From JALTID01 sp027004335 [NCBI: bacterium] (GTDB taxonomy: Bacteria > JALSQH01), in the NCBI GenBank assembly GCA_027004335.1, contig JALTID010000115.1, forward strand, positions 1,978-10,434: DNA of 8,457 bases, read 5' to 3'. Below, in pieces: positions 1 through 8,455 of the stretch. The notes beneath the pieces are model-generated. The model searched no databases, was not told where the DNA came from, and saw only the letters and a program-made list of their open reading frames with translations. The translations under genes and the position numbers were made by a program. The stretch's first letter is position 1, and each line of letters begins with the position of its first letter.

Positions 1-222
1 AAACTGCTGGGCAGGGGTAAGACTTTCAATTACCTCTTTACCCAGTGCCTTTTGCTTTACATCATCTACAAATTTTTTAACAATTCCATAATTAACATCA
101 GCTTCTAAAAGACTTATGCGCACCTCTCGTAGAGCTTCCTCTATGTTGTTCTCTCTGATTTTACCCTGTCCCTTTATATAGCGGGCAACTTTGTTTAACC
201 TTTCAGAAAGTTGATCAAACAT
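1..222 (-). CDS. ffh: Signal recognition particle GTPase Ffh (SRP54), N-terminal part only
   Basis: The minus strand reads 74 open codons from an ATG at 222-220 to the window edge, so the 3' part of the gene is missing. The translation begins MFDQLSERLNKVARYIKG and continues with LREVRISLLEADVNYGIVKKF. This is the four-helix N domain of Ffh, including the conserved LLEADV motif, and it starts at the same Met-Phe as in other bacterial Ffh proteins. The GTPase (G) and RNA/signal-sequence-binding (M) domains lie outside the window; the family is usually about 450 residues. Ffh binds signal sequences emerging from the ribosome together with SRP RNA and hands them to FtsY at the membrane. FtsY shares the NG fold but normally has an acidic extension and not this N-terminus. 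The start is supported by AGAGG about 10 nt upstream (near 233-237) and a promoter just beyond it. The gene is divergent from the large lipoprotein gene. Confidence 0.96.
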   Translation of the reverse strand, partial: MFDQLSERLNKVARYIKGQGKIRENNIEEALREVRISLLEADVNYGIVKKFVDDVKQKALGKEVIESLTPAQQF

Positions 223-374: not shown

Positions 375-3300
375 ATGAAAGAGAAGTTTTTTCTTTTTTT
401 AACAATTGTTTTTATCCTCTCTTCCTGTTCGGGACACAAAAAGATCAAGACTCCAGAAACATATACCCTTAAAGATGTAAAAATTCTTTATGTGGAAGTT
501 GGAGACAGGTATGTAAAAATTTCATGGGAACTACCGGATGATTCACATGTAAAAAAAATCCAGGTAAACAGAAAAGAAAACTACTCGATAGATGGTGTTA
601 CAGATGGAGTGGTGGTATACAACGATGATCTTACTACTTCAGTGTATGACAGATCTGTCAGCAACGGCGTCACCTATTTCTACAAGATTTTTACAAGCGA
701 CGGTAAAATTTTTTCAAAGGGGGTAGAAATTAGTGCTACTCCAAACCCTCCTCCAGATATCACACCCCCGGCAGAAGTATACGATACTGAGATAACAGGA
801 GGAAATGGGTATATAAAAATAAGATGGAAGAATCCCTCCGATTCGGATTTTGCTGGAGTTCTCATCGTAAAAAGAGAGGATTCCTGCCCTCAGAGTGAGG
901 AGGATGGAGAAACAACCTATAGTGGGAAAGGCACAGAGGTAATTGATAGAGATGTGGAAAATTTTCACAAATATTGTTACAGGATCTTCACCTATGACAC
1001 AAGTGGAAATTATTCTTCCGGGATACTGCTCCATGGAGAGCCAATGGATCTAATACCGCCTCCAGAGATTCCTGTTTTCTATGCAGCAGCGGCATCTCAA
1101 CAGGTGATCCTCAGCTGGATTAATCCCGATGATCCTGATTTCTATACTGCAGAAATTTTCAAGGACTCAGTCTTAATATATAACTCCTCAGGCACAGAGG
1201 AGGTTTATTTTGATAAAAGTGTTTCTCCAGCTACAACATATACATACCTCATAAGAAGCTGTGATAAATATAACAACTGTACAGCAGGTATTTCAAAAAC
1301 TGTTACTACTCCCACAGGGAAGGATCTAATTCCCCCTTCATCTGTTAAAAATTTTCAGGTTTCTCCCTATCCTCCTGGAAACGGATTGATTCTCAGATGG
1401 CAACTACCTTCTGATCCTGATTTTGCATTTGTTGAAGTTTATGTACAGGAAAATTCCTGTTCCACTTTGAGCAGAGGGATAAAAGTTTATTCAGGAGTAT
1501 CCACAGGATTCACAGATTTCACATGTACTGGGAATTGCCTTAATGGCGATAAATACTGTTATACAATATATTCAGTTGATGCCTCACTTAATTACAGCTC
1601 TCCAGTAACTGGCGCAGGAATTCCACAGGATAGTGTACCTCCACCACCAGTAACAGATCTCATGGCAAATTGCAACAATAGTGGATATATAACCACCACA
1701 TGGAAAAACCCTGATTCCAAAGATCTATACGGTTATAAGCTCTTTGTTATAAATAGGAATTGCTTAAAGAATATTTATACTCCCCATGAGCTTGAAAATT
1801 CCTCTTCTCATAGATACCCCGTCATCATTACCCCTGTTACGGATCATTTCACCGATGAGAATCCACCACTTCCATCAGACAGAGAGCATCTCTGTTATGC
1901 CATATCTGCCATAGATAGATATGGCAACATGTCAGCCGCTCCGGCAACTACCGTGGTGGTTCATGATAACATCCCACCAGGGAAAATCAGATCCCTCACA
2001 GCACAACCTCAACCAGATGGAAGTATCTACTTTACATGGAAATATCCCTCCTCTCCAGATGTAAAAGGAGTAAAAATACTTCGTAGAACAGCAAGAGGCT
2101 CAGATGATGATTACTTCCTCCCATGCAGTGGTAGTGAAATTGCCTCGGTTTTCTACCCTGATTCCCAATTTCTTGATCAATCAATTCAGGGAGCTACAGG
2201 AGCTTACTACAATTACACCTTCTGCGCATATGACGAATGGCAGAATTACTCCATACCATATGATATAATGGTTCGTTCCTACGACTCACAGCCACCGGGG
2301 AAAGTAGAGAATCTTGTCTATATCGTTGATCCCAATGGAAAAAATGTGTATATCTCATGGGACAATCCATCCGATCCTGATTTTGCCGGGGTATTGCTCC
2401 TTAGAAGGGAAGACGGATATCCAGTTTCTCCTACAGATCCTTTTTCAGAAAAACTTCTCAATGGTGAAGAGAATGATTTTACAGACTTCTCCGTACTTCC
2501 TGATCATAGATATTACTATGCAATTTATTCATATGATAATAACGAAAACTACTCAGATGGTGTTAGCTTTTCCGTACTGGTTAAAGATATTCAACCCCCG
2601 GAAGATGTGAAAAATATAATTTTTCATGATCCAATCACTACCAATGTAATAACTCTCTCATGGAAAAATCCTACTGATGCAGATTTCAACGGAGTGACTA
2701 TAATAAAGAACTCCTCTCCTCCAGCCACCAGAAATGATGGCAAGATCATATACAGAGGGAAAGGTGAAGAAATAACTTTTTACCAGCCGAGGGGGGAATT
2801 AAACTTTTATGCCTTTTACACATCTGACACCTCATTAAATTATTCAAAAGGTGTAACATCTGCATTTGCTCCCGCATGGATAACCGGGGTAACTGGAGGA
2901 AGTTATGGTGAAGATCTTTCCTTAACAAAATATGGGAAAAATATTTTCATTCTCTACTACTCTTCTGCTCTTTCACTTGGGATTATACTCGAGAAAAGAA
3001 CTCTTAAAGGGGATCTTATCTTAAGAAAGACTTTATCAAAATTCGCCTCGCCAGAATTTCTTTCTATTGCTCATTCCAATAATTACATCTGGACCTTATT
3101 GGGCAGAAGTGATAGAGCAGAAATTTATAAGATCTCACCTGATGGTACAGTAATGAAAAAGAAAGCTATTGAAGGTCAATGGAAAAATGGAAAATTAATC
3201 TCATGCGGTAGCAGAGTTAATTTGATCCTATCATCAGGCAATTCTGCTGGAATTGTGGTAAAAATAAATGAAGACTTTTCTTCATCTTCATATCAGATAC

Positions 3301-4679
3301 CGATTTCTCCAGAATTCTCAGCACTGTGCTACGGGAATCTAATTACCTACACCCATATTGACGATCAAATCCACCTCACCACTTTTTACAATGGAGACAT
3401 TACTTCAGAAGTAGTAAGAAACTACGGTGGTTACTCACCTGAAATAACATGGGAAGAGGAAACATGGCGAATACTCTTCCAATCTTATTCACCATTTGAA
3501 TTTTATACATTATCATCCTCAGGGTATCAGGGGGAAATAACCGATGAAGGATGGTATCCATCATTCGTAAGTGACAGTAATTTCATCTTTTATAATCCAG
3601 ATGAAGGTGAGATCTTCTACGGGAAAATCCTTACTGATTCTACATACTTAATCCCGATAGCCTCAATAGGGGTGGGATTCCTGAAATCCTTTTACTCCAC
3701 CAGTATTACAGGGGTAATTTATTCAGATATCAACACATACTCTCTCAATTTATTGACTTTCTCTTCTATAATTGAAAATGACAAGACTCTCATCAAGGGA
3801 AATTACTTCACATACCTTAAAGCAGTATCCACCGATGCGGGGGATTTCCTTCTCCTGAAAGATAAAATGAACAACAGCTACATTTTTGATGTAGCAAACA
3901 ACATATACCTTCCTGTAACCACCTCTACAGAAGATATTTCAAGCGCAGGGGGCACTTTGGATGAACTCCGCATCGGAGCTAATGGAAATTTATTTATAGT
4001 AAGATACTATCCCCTGACGCAGACAGAAGAAGTACTTAAGCTCAACATAACAGGAGATAACGGAAAAATCTGTGTGAGTGATAAGATTATGGTTATTTAT
4101 GATTCGGGGGGATCACTCTATGCAGATTCCATCACTTTCTCCACCGGGATAACTCAGAGCATCAGTCAAATACCTGTGGCCTTTAATTCATATTCTCTTT
4201 CCTGTTCTGCCGGGAAATTTTATGCAGGAATAATTAATGGGGGCACCGGGAATTACAATCTTTACCTCTACGATGTAAGTTCAGGCCCTGCTCTGCTCTG
4301 GCAGAAATCACTTTCAACAAACTTTCCATTTGCATCAATCAGAAATTCTGAAACCTATATTGATGTTTTTGTGAATGACAATGGTATCTCGTGGTACAGG
4401 CTTGATAGCACAGGTCAAGTAGTAAATTCATCCACAGTTTCAAACGGAACCATCCCCGCTTTATTCAATGAAAACAATTCCATGAAATACCTGACTTTTA
4501 AAGATCTCTACTTCGGGGATCTATATTTAGGAAGATTTCTAAACGACAGGTGGTACTATGGTACAGTTGACACAATTGGCGATACAGGAAATTCGCCTTC
4601 TGTGATCACAGGTAAAAATTTTGTTAAAATTTACTATATTTCAGATGGAGCCATTTATAGGGCACTTCTCCCCAGATAA
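375..4679 (+). CDS. Giant predicted surface lipoprotein: eight FnIII-like domains plus a propeller-like C-terminus
   Basis: I do not recognise a named family for this 1434-residue protein. Residues 1-18 form a lipoprotein signal peptide: Lys2 and Lys4, a hydrophobic core, then lipobox L15-S16-S17-C18. Cys18 would be lipidated, and Ser at +2 suggests the outer membrane under the E. coli Lol rule. Residues 31 to about 832 hold eight fibronectin type III-like domains of 92-112 residues, beginning near 31, 131, 228, 320, 422, 534, 640 and 741. They share a core of W-x-x-P-x-D-x-D-F-x-G-V, a Tyr-rich strand and D-x3-N-Y-S. Residues 834-1434 lack FnIII features and look like a degenerate beta-propeller with repeated x-P-S/E blade starts. 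No catalytic motif, sortase signal or membrane segment is visible after the lipobox. The start is the only in-frame ATG after the stop at 315-317, but its Shine-Dalgarno is poor (AAAGAAA directly before it). Likely roles are adhesion, binding of a polymer or partner, or a structural surface filament; none is proven. It is divergent from ffh and 49 bp upstream of gltX. Confidence 0.88.
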   Translation: MKEKFFLFLTIVFILSSCSGHKKIKTPETYTLKDVKILYVEVGDRYVKISWELPDDSHVKKIQVNRKENYSIDGVTDGVVVYNDDLTTSVYDRSVSNGVTYFYKIFTSDGKIFSKGVEISATPNPPPDITPPAEVYDTEITGGNGYIKIRWKNPSDSDFAGVLIVKREDSCPQSEEDGETTYSGKGTEVIDRDVENFHKYCYRIFTYDTSGNYSSGILLHGEPMDLIPPPEIPVFYAAAASQQVILSWINPDDPDFYTAEIFKDSVLIYNSSGTEEVYFDKSVSPATTYTYLIRSCDKYNNCTAGISKTVTTPTGKDLIPPSSVKNFQVSPYPPGNGLILRWQLPSDPDFAFVEVYVQENSCSTLSRGIKVYSGVSTGFTDFTCTGNCLNGDKYCYTIYSVDASLNYSSPVTGAGIPQDSVPPPPVTDLMANCNNSGYITTTWKNPDSKDLYGYKLFVINRNCLKNIYTPHELENSSSHRYPVIITPVTDHFTDENPPLPSDREHLCYAISAIDRYGNMSAAPATTVVVHDNIPPGKIRSLTAQPQPDGSIYFTWKYPSSPDVKGVKILRRTARGSDDDYFLPCSGSEIASVFYPDSQFLDQSIQGATGAYYNYTFCAYDEWQNYSIPYDIMVRSYDSQPPGKVENLVYIVDPNGKNVYISWDNPSDPDFAGVLLLRREDGYPVSPTDPFSEKLLNGEENDFTDFSVLPDHRYYYAIYSYDNNENYSDGVSFSVLVKDIQPPEDVKNIIFHDPITTNVITLSWKNPTDADFNGVTIIKNSSPPATRNDGKIIYRGKGEEITFYQPRGELNFYAFYTSDTSLNYSKGVTSAFAPAWITGVTGGSYGEDLSLTKYGKNIFILYYSSALSLGIILEKRTLKGDLILRKTLSKFASPEFLSIAHSNNYIWTLLGRSDRAEIYKISPDGTVMKKKAIEGQWKNGKLISCGSRVNLILSSGNSAGIVVKINEDFSSSSYQIPISPEFSALCYGNLITYTHIDDQIHLTTFYNGDITSEVVRNYGGYSPEITWEEETWRILFQSYSPFEFYTLSSSGYQGEITDEGWYPSFVSDSNFIFYNPDEGEIFYGKILTDSTYLIPIASIGVGFLKSFYSTSITGVIYSDINTYSLNLLTFSSIIENDKTLIKGNYFTYLKAVSTDAGDFLLLKDKMNNSYIFDVANNIYLPVTTSTEDISSAGGTLDELRIGANGNLFIVRYYPLTQTEEVLKLNITGDNGKICVSDKIMVIYDSGGSLYADSITFSTGITQSISQIPVAFNSYSLSCSAGKFYAGIINGGTGNYNLYLYDVSSGPALLWQKSLSTNFPFASIRNSETYIDVFVNDNGISWYRLDSTGQVVNSSTVSNGTIPALFNENNSMKYLTFKDLYFGDLYLGRFLNDRWYYGTVDTIGDTGNSPSVITGKNFVKIYYISDGAIYRALLPR
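465..2873 (+). repeat. Tandem array of eight FnIII-like domain repeats within the lipoprotein gene
   Basis: The repeat shows at protein level. At DNA level only short blocks such as GATCCTGATTT recur (for example near 1131, 1411 and 2371), so the duplications are old and diverged. Domains 2 to 8 are each preceded by Asp-x-x-Pro-Pro: DITPP, DLIPP, DLIPP, DSVPP, DNIPP, DSQPP and DIQPP, with the first Pro near residues 131, 228, 320, 422, 534, 640 and 741. Inside each unit a W-x-x-P-x-(D/S)-x-D segment is followed about 60 residues later by D-x3-N-(Y/M/C)-(S/T). Domain 1 is the most divergent: it has LPDDSH in place of NPSDPDF and lacks the NYS segment. Domain 5 has an insertion of about 15 residues before strand F. 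Confidence 0.85.
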
Positions 4680-4680
4680 T

Positions 4681-4708
4681 TTGATAAAAGCCCTTTATCC
4701 AATATAAT
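4681..4708 (+). promoter_or_regulatory. Predicted sigma-70-type promoter of gltX
   Basis: TTGATA (4681-4686, five of six bases of the -35 consensus) and a perfect TATAAT (4703-4708) are 16 bp apart, starting two bases after the lipoprotein stop codon. Transcription would start near 4715, giving a leader of about 14 nt that begins just before the Shine-Dalgarno AAGGGGA (4717-4723, 5 nt before the ATG). gltX is therefore probably transcribed independently of the lipoprotein gene. A 6-bp inverted repeat, GATAAA/TTTATC (4683-4688 and 4694-4699), overlaps the -35 box and spacer. Confidence 0.7.
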
Positions 4709-4728: not shown

Positions 4729-6162
4729 ATGTCCGAAGTGAGAGTCCGTTTCGCTCCATCACCCACAGGATACCTGCATATCGGAGGGGCAAGAACAGCC
4801 ATTTTCAATTATCTCTATGCAAGGCATCATAATGGGAAATTCATTTTAAGAATTGAAGACACAGACATAGAGAGATCCAGCAAAGAATACACCCGGGCAA
4901 TTCTGAGATCAATGCAGTGGCTGGGTCTTGACTGGGATGAAGGTCCATATTTCCAGAGCCAGAGATTTGATATTTACAACAAGTATCTAAAAAAGCTTCT
5001 TGAAAATAAAACAGGGTATAGATGCTGGTGCTCACCCGAAGAGCTCTCCGATTTCAAAAATTCCCTGAGAGAAAAGAAACTAAAATTTAAGAAAAAATAT
5101 ATTGAAGAAACAAATCTACACTGGCTCTCAGAAAGAGAGAATATCTATCCCGTGGTAATTGTAGAAACTCCCTTAGAGGGAACTATTACATATAAGGATA
5201 TAGTGAAGGGTAATATAACCTTTTCTGCAAAAGATCTTAATGATTTTATAATATGGAGGTCAAATGACACTCCAATATACAACTTTGTAGTGGTAGTTGA
5301 CGACAGCGATATGGGTATTACCCATGTAATAAGAGGAGACGACCATATAAGCAACACCCCCAAGCAGATAATCATATATAATGCACTAAAACTGGAACTT
5401 CCCTATTTTGCCCACATCCCTATGATTCTGGGGCCAGATAAAAAAAGACTCAGCAAGAGGCATGGAGCAACATCTGTGGAGGCATATAAACAGCAGGGAT
5501 ATCTGCCTGAAGCACTTTTTAACTATCTGGTAAGGTTGGGATGGTCCTACGGAGATCAAGAGATATTCTCAAAAGATGAACTTGTTGGAAAATTTGATCT
5601 TGACAATGTGGGAAAATCAGCAGCGATTTTCAACCCCGAAAAACTTCTCTGGCTTAATGCCGAATATATTAAAAGTTCACACCATGCAAGGCTTTTTGAT
5701 GAAATTATAGATAGAATCCCCGAGGAGGAGAGAAGCAAACTCCGATCCGATAGCAATTTTTTCAAGCTCATAGGACTTGTAAAAATAAGAAGCAGGACAC
5801 TCAGAGAACTCTATGAGAATTTGAAATTCTACTTTGAACCATATCCCAATGAGTATGACTCAAAGGGAGTAAGGAAATTCTTTTCCAAAAAAACGCTTTA
5901 CGAGGCACTGAGAGCACTCTATAAAAAATTAGATGTGATGATCCATTTCAATGAAGAAAATCTGGAAAATGCTTTCAATGAAATAGCTACAGAGTACAAT
6001 GTTAAACTCAGAGACCTTGCACAGTCTGTGAGATTGGCAATAACCGGGAAAACAGTAAGTCCTGGGATATTTGAGATCATAGAACTTCTGGGGAAACTCC
6101 GTACCATGAGAAAACTCCAATATGCCATTCAATGGATTGAGAAACACATAACATTTGAATAA
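4729..6162 (+). CDS. gltX: Glutamyl-tRNA synthetase (GluRS)
   Basis: GluRS joins glutamate to tRNA-Glu in the cytoplasm using ATP. The 477-residue protein has the usual bacterial length. The class I signature HIGH appears as H17-I-G-G inside FAPSPTGYLHIGGARTA. The KMSKS motif appears as K239-R-L-S-K243, inside DKKRLSKRHGA. Between them are FVVVVDDSDMGITHVIRGDDH, here cut at 20 residues to FVVVVDDSDMGITHVIRGDD, and SNTPKQ, which are typical of the GluRS catalytic core. Residues from about 320 on are the helical anticodon-binding region. The zinc-type insertion keeps Cys99-x-Cys101 and Tyr124, but the position of the last Cys ligand of E. coli GluRS is Thr128. A strong Shine-Dalgarno (AAGGGGA) and its own promoter support the ATG. 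From sequence alone I cannot say whether it is strictly tRNA-Glu specific or also charges tRNA-Gln; gatCAB and glnS are not in view. The next gene, tetR-like, is 51 bp downstream on the same strand. Confidence 0.97.
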   Translation: MSEVRVRFAPSPTGYLHIGGARTAIFNYLYARHHNGKFILRIEDTDIERSSKEYTRAILRSMQWLGLDWDEGPYFQSQRFDIYNKYLKKLLENKTGYRCWCSPEELSDFKNSLREKKLKFKKKYIEETNLHWLSERENIYPVVIVETPLEGTITYKDIVKGNITFSAKDLNDFIIWRSNDTPIYNFVVVVDDSDMGITHVIRGDDHISNTPKQIIIYNALKLELPYFAHIPMILGPDKKRLSKRHGATSVEAYKQQGYLPEALFNYLVRLGWSYGDQEIFSKDELVGKFDLDNVGKSAAIFNPEKLLWLNAEYIKSSHHARLFDEIIDRIPEEERSKLRSDSNFFKLIGLVKIRSRTLRELYENLKFYFEPYPNEYDSKGVRKFFSKKTLYEALRALYKKLDVMIHFNEENLENAFNEIATEYNVKLRDLAQSVRLAITGKTVSPGIFEIIELLGKLRTMRKLQYAIQWIEKHITFE

Positions 6163-6213: not shown

Positions 6214-6807
6214 ATGAAGAGATTAAAAAAAGAAGAAAGAAGAAAAAGGATCCTTGAGAGTGCTATAAAAGTATTTGCAAAGAAGAACTATCAATCAGCA
6301 ACAACCGCCGAAATTGCTAAAGAAGCTGAGGTGTCAGAAGCTTTGATATATCAGCACTTTAAAAGTAAAAAAGAACTTTTCATCGCAAGTATTGAAGAAA
6401 CTGCAGCCTTTTTTATTAATAACCTGAAAGGGATACTAAAAAGGCATGAAAATGATCCAGTTGAAGGTTTTAAAAGTGTATACAGGTTCTACTACAATTA
6501 CCTTAGAAGTGACCCAACTCTTGCAAAAATGAGCCTTATGATAATTGCCGATGCGGACGATCCTGAGATAAAACAGGCACTAAAAAAATACCTTGATCAC
6601 GCAGCCTTAATCCTTGCAAAAGCGATCTCCAATGCCCAGAAAAAAAAATTGCTTGTTGATACATTTGATCCAAAGGCAATGGCATGGCTTTTAGTCGGCA
6701 ATTACAATCTTCTTGCTCTCCTAAAACTCATTGACAGCCTGGATGCCTTTGACGAAAATTCTGTAATCAAAATAGTTGAACCCTTTGTAGAACAGAAAAT
6801 TAACTAA
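6214..6807 (+). CDS. TetR-family transcriptional regulator, possibly of fatty-acid metabolism
   Basis: The 197-residue length is typical of TetR-family repressors. Residues 8-57 form the DNA-binding domain: RRKRILESAIKVFAKK, then the helix-turn-helix at about 30-49 (TTAEIAKEAEVSEALIYQHF), then KSKKELF. The rest is an all-helical ligand and dimerisation domain of no obvious subfamily. Such proteins usually repress neighbouring genes and let go when they bind a small molecule. The convergent neighbour is an acyl-CoA synthetase, so an acyl-CoA or fatty-acid ligand, as for TetR-type FadR, is plausible but inferred from context only. The start is supported by AAAGAGG at 6202-6208, 5 nt before the ATG. 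A run of nine A bases (6640-6648) encodes Lys143-145. The last 8 bp of the gene overlap the end of the convergent gene. Confidence 0.9.
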   Translation: MKRLKKEERRKRILESAIKVFAKKNYQSATTAEIAKEAEVSEALIYQHFKSKKELFIASIEETAAFFINNLKGILKRHENDPVEGFKSVYRFYYNYLRSDPTLAKMSLMIIADADDPEIKQALKKYLDHAALILAKAISNAQKKKLLVDTFDPKAMAWLLVGNYNLLALLKLIDSLDAFDENSVIKIVEPFVEQKIN

Positions 6808-8455
6808 TTATAAATTCCTTGCCATATCTTTCCTTCAAAAATCTCTTGAGGATTTTTTCTGTAGGGCCATACGGCATTGTCCCCCTCTCTATTATCTTCA
6901 CTTTCCTTGGGGCCTTATATGGAGCAATATGTTCCTTTGCCCATTTTACAAGTTCTTCCTCTGTTACATTTCCATCCTCATGAAGAGTTACAACTGCTAC
7001 AGGGATCTCCTTTTTTATTGGATGGGGAACCCCAAATACTGCTATTTCAAAGATATCTGGATGCTGTCGCATCTCTGCTTCTACCTCAGCAGGAAAAATT
7101 GAATAACCACCTGATTTTATAAGATCCTTCTTTCTATCCATAAAATAGACCCTTCCCCAAAAATCTTTCTTTCCAATATCCCCTGTTCTAAACCATCCAT
7201 CTGGGGTAAAGCTTTCCTTTGTCTTTTCAGGATTTTTCCAGTAACCTTTGGTAACTCCAGGCCCTTTCACAACAACCTCACCTGTCTTGCCAGAGGGAAG
7301 TTTTTCCCCATTTTCATCAATAATTCTTATCTTCATCGGAGGAACAGGCCATCCTATGCAACCAGGCTTACATCTAAGAACAGGAAGAGGAACCTTTAAA
7401 GTTGCTATTCCAGATAATTCAACCATTCCATACGCTTCTAAAAAAAGGGGCTTAATCCTTAAAGGACCCAGTCGCACCAGAGCTCCATATTTCCTCATCT
7501 CCTCAACATACTCAGGAGGCATAGCATCAGCAGCACTTGCCCAGATTCTAACAGAGGAAAGATCATATTCTCCATTGTTCCTCCTTAATTCATCTATCAT
7601 CATTCCATACATTGCAGGCACTCCCACAAATACAGTAATTCTATTTTTTGTAATCACTTTCAGCACCTTCTTTGCCTCAAAATGCTTAATCAGGTAACCC
7701 TTCACATTGGCAAAAGTTCCTAAAATAGCCACTGCTGTTCCCATTATATGTGCAAAAGGGAGAGAAAAGATTCCCAAGTCAGATTTTCTTGTGGGAATCA
7801 CTATTCCTGCCATTTTTTGTCCCTGTATTAAACTCCTGCTGGTAGTAATAGCACCCTTTGGCTTGCCTGTAGTCCCAGATGTATAGAAAATTCCAACAGG
7901 ATCCCCTGGCTTCATATCAACAGGGGATAACTCTATAGGCTCCCCCTCTATGCCTATATCAAGGCTTTCTACTCCATCCAGTACAGTATCAGCAGGGCCA
8001 GCCATTATCAAGTTTTCAATATAGGAAACATTTTTCAATTCCTTAATATTTTCATCAAAAACATATCTATCAAAAATAAAAAACCTTGCACCACTATCTT
8101 TAAGGATATAATCAATTTCTCCAAGTCTCAGCATGGAATTTATAGGTAAAGCGATTGCGCCAATTTTAAAAATAGCAAGCATTATCATAAACATATCTGC
8201 GTTATTCTCCATGCAAACAGCAACTATGTCTTCTCTTTTAACTCCTGCATCCTTTAGAAAATTACCCACTCTATTTATAAATTTCATGGCATCAGTGGCA
8301 TAGATTGTGTCACTTGCTAACACCTTATACCGCAAAGGGGACTCAAGTATGGAAGTGATCCTGTCACCATAATAATCCATCAACTTTTCAGTAAAATTGG
8401 CTGCTGTGAAATTTTTATCTCTTAATACTCTGAATTTTTCAACTATAATTCCCAT
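6800..8455 (-). CDS. Acyl-CoA synthetase (AMP-forming, ANL superfamily), FadD-like
   Basis: The enzyme would activate a carboxylic acid with ATP to an acyl-adenylate and transfer it to CoA. All main ANL motifs are present in order: the P-loop T192-SGTTGKPKG-201, P233-FAH-236 (A4), A341-YGMVE-346 (A5), T424-G-D426 (A7), D440-RKKD-444 with GGYSIFPAEVE (hinge and A8), and catalytic Lys534 near the C-terminus. The Lys stands in P-T-E-K-I-L-K-R, with Glu533 where most members have Gly. A segment of about nine residues (near 327-335) precedes A5. At 551 residues the protein is of normal size. Long- or medium-chain fatty acids are the likeliest substrates, but related ligases act on aromatic or bile acids, so I give no gene symbol. 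The ATG at 8455-8453 is only 2 bp from the window edge, so its ribosome site cannot be seen and a longer N-terminus is possible. The gene converges on the TetR-family gene. Confidence 0.92.
   Translation of the reverse strand: MGIIVEKFRVLRDKNFTAANFTEKLMDYYGDRITSILESPLRYKVLASDTIYATDAMKFINRVGNFLKDAGVKREDIVAVCMENNADMFMIMLAIFKIGAIALPINSMLRLGEIDYILKDSGARFFIFDRYVFDENIKELKNVSYIENLIMAGPADTVLDGVESLDIGIEGEPIELSPVDMKPGDPVGIFYTSGTTGKPKGAITTSRSLIQGQKMAGIVIPTRKSDLGIFSLPFAHIMGTAVAILGTFANVKGYLIKHFEAKKVLKVITKNRITVFVGVPAMYGMMIDELRRNNGEYDLSSVRIWASAADAMPPEYVEEMRKYGALVRLGPLRIKPLFLEAYGMVELSGIATLKVPLPVLRCKPGCIGWPVPPMKIRIIDENGEKLPSGKTGEVVVKGPGVTKGYWKNPEKTKESFTPDGWFRTGDIGKKDFWGRVYFMDRKKDLIKSGGYSIFPAEVEAEMRQHPDIFEIAVFGVPHPIKKEIPVAVVTLHEDGNVTEEELVKWAKEHIAPYKAPRKVKIIERGTMPYGPTEKILKRFLKERYGKEFIIS
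6837..6857 (+). terminator. Weak candidate terminator for the TetR-family gene, inside the opposing gene
   Basis: AAAAATCT (6837-6844) can pair with GGATTTTT (6850-6857, one G-U pair) around a 5-nt loop. The T run (6853-6858) is itself part of the 3' arm. It is AT-rich and unstable, and it lies within the acyl-CoA synthetase coding sequence (codons for ILKR). It is the only hairpin I noticed shortly after the regulator stop codon, and it may be chance. Confidence 0.2.

What the first reader, a model, noticed from the sequence alone, without database searches (positions are those of the whole stretch)
375..4679. Very large lipoprotein of unfamiliar architecture: eight FnIII-like domains plus a 600-residue propeller-like region
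The signal peptide and lipobox (L15-S-S-C18) are clear, and so are the eight repeats. The combination of a lipid anchor, about 800 residues of FnIII-like rod and a C-terminal globular region with no enzyme motif does not match a named family I know. It could be a surface stalk presenting a binding head. It accounts for half the window and sits between two housekeeping genes.
Basis: partly seen in the sequence, partly recalled or inferred. Interest (0 to 1): 0.6.

Follow-up and report, generated by a model that had tools for sequence, protein, structure and literature searches.

The report
Stalked probable-propeller lipoprotein, vent bacteria
This gene encodes a very long fat-anchored protein from a little-known deep-sea-vent bacterial lineage, built as a rod of eight small linked modules carrying a probable propeller-shaped head; it is one of a set of related proteins with different rod lengths, is probably used to grip something outside the cell, and its parts are of known kinds.

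Summary
The ORF at 375-4679 (1434 aa) has a lipoprotein signal, eight fibronectin-III (FnIII) repeats at residues 31-833, and a 600-residue head. All eight repeats match one profile; repeat 7, the only one modelled, folds as FnIII (pLDDT 96). Pfam calls the repeats DUF4959, the membrane-proximal domain of Bacteroides SusE-like lipoproteins. The head model is weak (mean pLDDT 47), but its confident part is bladed and the listed structural matches are dominated by beta-propellers.

The genome shares a family with MAG JALSQH01, described as a potentially new vent phylum. Both genomes held for that phylum have paralogues with 5 and 2 FnIII domains and heads not detectably related by sequence. Rod length agrees between orthologues (8/8, 5/5, 2/2); heads diverge faster (35, 27, 28% identity against 57, 50, 68% for rods). 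17 of 18 cysteines are conserved: the lipobox and eight within-domain pairs. The ffh neighbour is conserved; gltX is not.

Most likely it is an outer-membrane stalk-and-head binding protein with an unknown ligand. New variant of a known kind, moderate interest.

The parts
375..428 (+). Lipoprotein signal peptide, residues 1-18, lipobox LSS-C18
   Evidence: sequence read directly; LPAM_1 weak, E 0.37; lipobox-type Cys also in the G001 orthologue and in four paralogues with intact N-termini
465..743 (+). FnIII-like repeat 1 (residues 31-123)
   Evidence: profile hit 33-123, i-E 2.0e-28; lacks the D-x-x-PP start
756..1049 (+). FnIII-like repeat 2 (residues 128-225), Cys171/Cys201
   Evidence: profile hit i-E 1.2e-38; cysteines conserved
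1047..1322 (+). FnIII-like repeat 3 (residues 225-316), Cys296/Cys302
   Evidence: profile hit 225-312, i-E 4.7e-26; cysteines conserved
1323..1631 (+). FnIII-like repeat 4 (residues 317-419), Cys362/384 and 388/395; best Pfam DUF4959 stretch 311-412
1629..1967 (+). FnIII-like repeat 5 (residues 419-531), Cys463/507; Cys433 is Ser in G001
1965..2285 (+). FnIII-like repeat 6 (residues 531-637), Cys584/617
2283..2588 (+). FnIII-like repeat 7 (residues 637-738); AF2 seven-strand sandwich, pLDDT 96
2586..2873 (+). FnIII-like repeat 8 (residues 738-833)
   Evidence: profile hit i-E 4.0e-32
2877..4676 (+). C-terminal head (residues 835-1434), probable beta-propeller(s); Cys944/985 and Cys1233/1277
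   Evidence: AF2 mean pLDDT 47, confident about 846-975 (model covers 836-1434); Foldseek and VIA; cysteines conserved
1..222 (-). 5' end of ffh, head to head with the lipoprotein gene; the arrangement is conserved in G001
   Evidence: NCBIfam TIGR00959 ffh 2.9e-153 for the part beyond the window and 1.5e-185 for G001; 83% identical over 367 aa
223..374 (.). Divergent intergenic region (152 bp; 161 bp in G001)
   Evidence: coordinates; alignment
4729..6162 (+). gltX, glutamate--tRNA ligase; not a conserved neighbour
   Evidence: TIGR00464 7.6e-165; on another contig in G001; promoter-like site 4681-4708

Best explanation
It is an outer-membrane lipoprotein built as a stalk with a binding head. 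SHOWN by sequence or computation: a lipobox at residue 18; eight tandem FnIII-like domains, five of them with conserved cysteine pairs; a C-terminal head of 600 residues whose confidently modelled part is all-beta and bladed; a genome with Omp85, TonB-receptor, secretin and LolA genes; paralogues with shorter rods and different heads; faster divergence of heads than rods. INFERRED: lipid attachment and sorting to the outer membrane; exposure outside the cell; the FnIII domains acting as an extended spacer, perhaps 25-30 nm if straight (about 3.5 nm per domain, recalled); the cysteine pairs being disulfides; the head being one or two propellers that bind a ligand. The ligand is unknown; a glycan, polymer, nutrient or another cell's surface are the leading options.
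For: Eight FnIII copies, FnIII fold of repeat 7, DUF4959 match. Head: four-strand blades in residues 846-975; Foldseek's 50 listed rows are dominated by propeller proteins, many with two propellers in tandem such as IFT-A subunits, LRP6, EML1 and DDB1 (what these chains are is partly recalled); VIA Z 15.2, rmsd 2.8 A over 190 residues with the lectin PLL2. Outer-membrane markers in 2 of 2 phylum genomes: Omp85, TonB-dependent receptor barrel, secretin, LolA. Rod/head identity: A 57/35, B 50/27, C 68/28% (the C rod figure is its first domain only), beside Ffh 83% and GltX 72%. 17 of 18 Cys conserved.
Against: Most of the head model has low confidence (377 of 599 residues under pLDDT 50), and TM-scores of the listed Foldseek rows are low (0.13-0.30 by query length). 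Sequence periodicity of the head did not show a 45-residue blade period (strongest lags 133, 78 and 34; hydropathy lag 31). No ligand-site motif was found. No transporter, enzyme or glycan-use gene was recognised beside it, apart from an acyl-CoA ligase. LPAM_1 is below cut-off. Surface exposure is untested; the protein could face the periplasm. LolA also rang in two archaeal control genomes, so it is a weak marker. VKOR was found in G001 but not in G000, so the disulfide route in the window's own incomplete genome is unconfirmed. Fast head divergence may be relaxed constraint rather than ligand specialisation.
Confidence: 0.55

Rival explanations
1. The head is an enzyme (a propeller glycosidase, sialidase or lyase) held away from the cell by the FnIII rod.
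For: FnIII rods are common spacers in secreted carbohydrate enzymes (recalled). VIA lists propeller glycoside hydrolases such as BT3686 and BACINT_00347.
Against: No family at E up to 10 for the head in Pfam. No Asp-box in the window protein or its orthologue's two pieces. The Z 14 glycosidase rows have rmsd about 18 A, so they are not real superpositions; the better ones (Z 12.5, rmsd 3.2-3.4 A) are no closer than many unrelated propellers.
Confidence: 0.12
2. A periplasm-facing scaffold: an outer-membrane lipoprotein that reaches inward and binds envelope proteins, as the propeller lipoprotein BamB does.
For: BamB chains are among the VIA rows (Z 12.7-13.0, rmsd 2.8-3.2 A, 132-162 residues). 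LolA is present.
Against: An eight-domain rod would probably be longer than the periplasm is wide (recalled dimensions). BamB has no FnIII rod (recalled). The fast divergence of heads beside conserved rods suits contact with a changing outside partner better (inference).
Confidence: 0.15
3. An adhesin or cell-cell recognition protein whose heads diversify, possibly also under phage pressure, with paralogues reaching different heights.
For: Heads of groups A, B and C are not detectably related (hhalign probability 5.5% for A-B, 0.2% for A-C, 0.2% for B-C); heads diverge faster than rods in all three groups; FnIII counts agree between orthologues.
Against: Two genomes only; no population data; phase-variation signals were not looked for; fast divergence is also expected of relaxed constraint.
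Confidence: 0.15

Closest known systems
SusE-like lipoproteins with DUF4959 (Bacteroides thetaiotaomicron BT2857, BT3158; PMC8211771, passages read)
   Same: N-terminal lipid anchor; FN3-like DUF4959 domain next to the membrane; further beta domains after it
   Different: Three domains (DUF4959-DUF5126-DUF5000) beside susC/D; here eight FnIII domains, a 600-residue probable propeller head, no DUF5000 hit, no susC/D neighbours
BtuG, corrinoid-binding surface lipoprotein (PMC10404256, passages read)
   Same: Lipid-anchored surface beta-propeller; BT1954 is among the VIA rows, Z 12.8, rmsd 3.3 A over 181
   Different: BtuG2 is one propeller on a linker capping BtuB; here a long FnIII rod, a head nearly twice as long, and no transporter gene recognised beside it
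PLL-family seven-bladed lectins of Photorhabdus (PMC6943638, passages read)
   Same: Best VIA rows for head residues 836-1042 (Z 15.2, rmsd 2.8 A over 190); four-stranded blades
   Different: No sequence match in the PDB at E up to 10; PLLs have no FnIII rod (recalled); YncE is tied within Z 1
Fibronectin type III domains (fibronectin FN7-10, PDB 1fnf)
   Same: Seven-strand sandwich, Foldseek E 5.0e-6, TM 0.73 by query length
   Different: Bacterial D-x-x-PP ... W-x-NP-x-D-x-DF-x-G-V type, several with conserved cysteine pairs

Membership tests
Fibronectin type III domain (repeats 1-8) | Seven-strand A-B-C-C'-E-F-G sandwich | tested here: met
   Repeat 7 only: AF2 pLDDT 96, strands 9-15, 22-27, 36-42, 56-61, 65-68, 75-84, 94-100; PDB FnIII matches. 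The other 7 of 8 repeats rest on sequence similarity to it
Fibronectin type III domain (repeats 1-8) | Core Trp in strand B and Tyr in strand F (recalled rule) | tested here: met
   W26 and Y79 of the repeat-7 numbering are invariant in 8 of 8 repeats
Pfam DUF4959 (PF16323) | Score over the curated cut-off | tested here: met
   55.2 bits against 32.9 for the whole protein; orthologue 52.1. All five B and C proteins are under the DUF4959 cut-off; 2 of 3 B and 1 of 2 C proteins pass fn3 instead
SusE-like proteins (DUF4959-DUF5126-DUF5000) | Three-domain order with C-terminal DUF5000 | tested here: not met
   DUF5126 only 16.1 bits against cut-off 27, DUF5000 not listed at E up to 1
SusE-like proteins (DUF4959-DUF5126-DUF5000) | Gene next to susC/susD | tested here: not met
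   Neighbours are ffh, gltX, a TetR gene and an acyl-CoA ligase gene
PLL lectins | Seven-bladed propeller fold | tested here: inconclusive
   VIA Z 15.2 for part of a low-confidence model, tied within 1 with YncE
PLL lectins | Sugar sites with stacking Trp between blades | not tested
   Head model too poor to place sites
Sialidase/BNR propellers | Asp-box S-x-D-x-G-x-T-W (recalled) | tested here: not met
   0 in the window protein and in the two pieces of its orthologue; one in paralogue B of G000
BtuG surface lipoproteins | Gene beside btuB | tested here: not met
   The 10.4-kb contig (ORFs of 100 aa or more) holds a trmD-like end, ffh, the lipoprotein, gltX, a TetR gene and an acyl-CoA ligase gene; the contig ends limit the view
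BtuG surface lipoproteins | Beta-propeller fold | tested here: inconclusive
   BT1954 Z 12.8, rmsd 3.3 A over 181
Bacterial lipoprotein | Signal peptide with lipobox Cys | tested here: met
   LSS-C18 read from the sequence, Cys conserved in orthologue; Pfam LPAM_1 only weak; lipidation itself not testable here

The most novel reading that the evidence does not exclude
Members of the JALSQH01 lineage display a graded set of lipid-anchored rods of fixed, paralogue-specific lengths (8, 5 and 2 FnIII domains), stapled by disulfides, each lifting a different fast-evolving propeller head to its own height above the outer membrane: a staggered recognition layer in which height and specificity are set separately.
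Probability: 0.2. Interest if true: 0.55.

Novelty: new variant of a known kind. Interest (0 to 1): 0.36.

Why it matters
In the library held here only one paper uses the name JALSQH01, so little seems to be known of this lineage's cell surface. The family offers concrete, expressible proteins from it. Rod lengths that agree between genera beside diverging heads give a simple testable idea, that reach and ligand choice are under separate selection. The parts themselves (FnIII rods, probable propellers, lipid anchors) are ordinary.

Tried and rejected
A two-fold duplication of the head was considered, because Cys944/985 and Cys1233/1277 lie 289-292 residues apart and hhalign's second self-match has an offset of 280-291 (P 0.14). 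A profile alignment of the two halves scored no better than shuffled columns (z 0.6; 17 of 60 shuffles reached it), so the duplication is not claimed. A blade period was not visible in the sequence alone.

Homology of the heads between groups was tested and not found for A-B, A-C and B-C; the A-B comparison has one short match of 47 columns, P 0.007 but probability 5.5%. Group A heads were found in 2 of 386 genomes; group B heads in 4 of 386, two of these being short partial hits in distant genomes (G010 over 86 and G151 over 56 model positions, E 1.2e-4 and 3.3e-4); the G151 protein is of BNR_4 type. Nearly all of the 386 are from other phyla, so this does not show absence elsewhere. Group C heads were not searched for. 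A whole-protein search found matches in 7 of 41 genomes, the five outside the phylum in the FnIII part only.

Phage origin: no PHROGs hit at E up to 0.1. No Rfam family on the contig at gathering thresholds. A shared operon with gltX was judged unlikely: different neighbour in G001 and a promoter-like site before gltX (the region as a whole holds fewer promoter-like sites, 11, than its shuffles, 15.7, so the site is weak evidence). An apparent break in ffh proved to be a run of N in the scaffold. The first genome-collection scan found nothing. The PADLOC library was not searched. Paper searches were used as listings only, apart from the papers named as read.

Full report
What is there. The ORF at 375-4679 encodes 1434 residues with a lipoprotein-type signal. 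A profile built from its own repeats finds eight strong copies between residues 33 and 833 and only a chance-level stretch after. The other seven repeats are 26-39% identical to repeat 7, and most pairs score far above shuffled sequence, with repeat 1 against 5 and 6 the weakest (z about 2). Pfam places the region in DUF4959 (1e-14, 55.2 bits, cut-off 32.9). Repeat 7, modelled with the other seven as its alignment, is a confident seven-strand sandwich (pLDDT 96), and the 50 listed PDB matches are mostly FnIII domains, first fibronectin itself. Only this one repeat of eight was modelled.

The head. Residues 836-1434 match nothing in Pfam (E up to 10) or, as a two-row profile, among PDB sequences (E up to 10). 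An AF2 model from two sequences is poor (mean pLDDT 47, pTM 0.33), but its confident residues near the start (846-975) show repeated four-strand blades 43-47 residues apart. The 50 listed Foldseek rows are dominated by propeller proteins, many with two propellers in tandem (their nature is partly recalled), at low TM-scores. VIA's best rows are PLL lectins (Z 15.2, rmsd 2.8 A over 190 residues), with YncE within 1 Z and BamB and BT1954 at 12.7-13.0. I take this as evidence for a propeller fold, not for any family. The length would fit two propellers; a duplication could not be shown from sequence, and sequence periodicity did not show the blade length.

Whose it is. The window's genome (1.5 Mb in 262 contigs, 80% complete) and G001 are the only two genomes held for the phylum. 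A G001 contig of 13,769 bases bearing the orthologue's C-terminal part corresponds to a public record of the same length and contig number, JALSQH010000104.1, a MAG titled only 'bacterium'. PMC9793634 (passages, including part of the abstract) names JALSQH01 as a potentially novel phylum from deep-sea vent deposits, with 3 MAGs. That G001 is that MAG, and that the window's organism belongs to the same lineage, is inferred from these matches and from the tool's 'same family' label.

The family. G000 has two paralogues: B, 1272 aa with five FnIII copies, and C, 950 aa with two. In C the profile sees one strong copy; the second scores only i-E 4.7e-3 in G000 and is missed in G001, and is recognised by BLASTP against repeats 2-3 of the window protein and by the G000-G001 alignment. 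G001 has an A orthologue, two B-type proteins (one cut by a contig end) and a C cut at its C-terminal end. The G001 A orthologue is split over two contig ends with roughly 10-16 residues missing between the pieces; that it is one gene is inferred from the colinear match. FnIII counts agree between orthologues: 8 and 8, 5 and 5, 2 and 2. Over both genomes the profile finds 15 copies in G000 and 21 in G001; 14 of 15 and 17 of 21 lie in these proteins.

Two patterns. First, heads diverge faster than rods in all three groups: A 57% rod, 35% head; B 50 and 27 (L008/L030), 55 and 35 (L008/L031), 46 and 30 (L030/L031, both of G001); C 68 and 28, where the C rod figure is its first domain only. Ffh is 83% identical over 367 residues and GltX 72%. 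The heads of the three groups are not detectably related to each other. Second, 17 of 18 cysteines of the window protein are conserved in G001, all but Cys433: the lipobox Cys and eight pairs within domains, 171/201, 296/302, 362/384, 388/395, 463/507, 584/617, 944/985 and 1233/1277 (the pairing is inferred from position). The head piece of G001 has two further cysteines (6 in all, 4 of them shared). Paralogues have similarly spaced cysteines. VKOR, one route to disulfides, was found in G001 but not in the incomplete G000; other routes were not searched.

Context. Both genomes carry Omp85, TonB-dependent receptor barrels, secretins and LolA (in the controls LolA also rang in two archaea), so an outer membrane and lipoprotein sorting are likely. 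The lipoprotein gene is head to head with ffh in both genomes, 152 and 161 bp apart. The other side is not conserved: G001's gltX is on another contig, and the ORF beyond the end of its A gene carries 4Fe-4S and CCG domains.

How it probably works. Lipidated at Cys18 and sorted to the outer membrane, the FnIII rod would hold a propeller head away from the membrane to bind something outside. The anatomy is shown; lipidation, location, exposure, disulfides and binding are inferred. The nearest working parallels are SusE-like proteins with a membrane-proximal DUF4959 (PMC8211771, passages) and BtuG, a propeller surface lipoprotein that captures corrinoids (PMC10404256, passages). It fails the domain order and gene context of the first and the gene context of the second. 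A search of the paper library for such a stalk-plus-propeller lipoprotein (five papers listed, judged by title and start of abstract only) showed no match; that is not proof of absence.

Verdict. It is a new variant of a known kind: a long-stalked, probably propeller-headed lipoprotein, one of a small graded family in a poorly known lineage.

Noticed in passing
6214-6807 (+) and 6800-8455 (-): A TetR-type regulator gene (best NCBIfam match a FadR fatty-acid regulator model, 66 bits against a cut-off of 200) overlaps by 8 bases the end of a convergent AMP-binding, long-chain acyl-CoA ligase-like gene.
   Followed up: partly
4729-6162; G000:C47:6055-7413: The genome holds a second glutamate--tRNA ligase-like gene, 37% identical; G001 has two as well. 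This suggests indirect Gln-tRNA synthesis (recalled idea, not tested).
   Followed up: no
L007:1968-1977: ffh carries a run of ten N (scaffold gap) just outside the window, which splits its reading frame in the assembly.
   Followed up: yes
L029:4599-7604: On the same G001 contig as the head piece lies another very large ORF (1001 aa) with a Cys after a signal-like start, a Big_5 Ig-like domain (9.5e-21) and FG-GAP matches.
   Followed up: partly
L008:2919-5732: Beside paralogue B lies a 937-aa ORF with a lipobox-like start and a metallophosphoesterase match (1.7e-5), resembling a surface 5'-nucleotidase (the last is my reading).
   Followed up: partly
L030:3-4167: In G001, paralogue B lies close to an RCC1-repeat protein, an FHA-domain protein and a Ser/Thr protein kinase gene.
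   Followed up: partly
G030:C12 and G030:C6: A distant genome has open frames of 3625 and 8313 aa matching the FnIII part; the C12 one shows the same D-PP ... W-NP ... DF-GV type of repeat.
   Followed up: partly
G001:C178:11-178: A lone FnIII copy at a contig end of G001 might be part of the missing front of the truncated second B-type protein; not tested.
   Followed up: no
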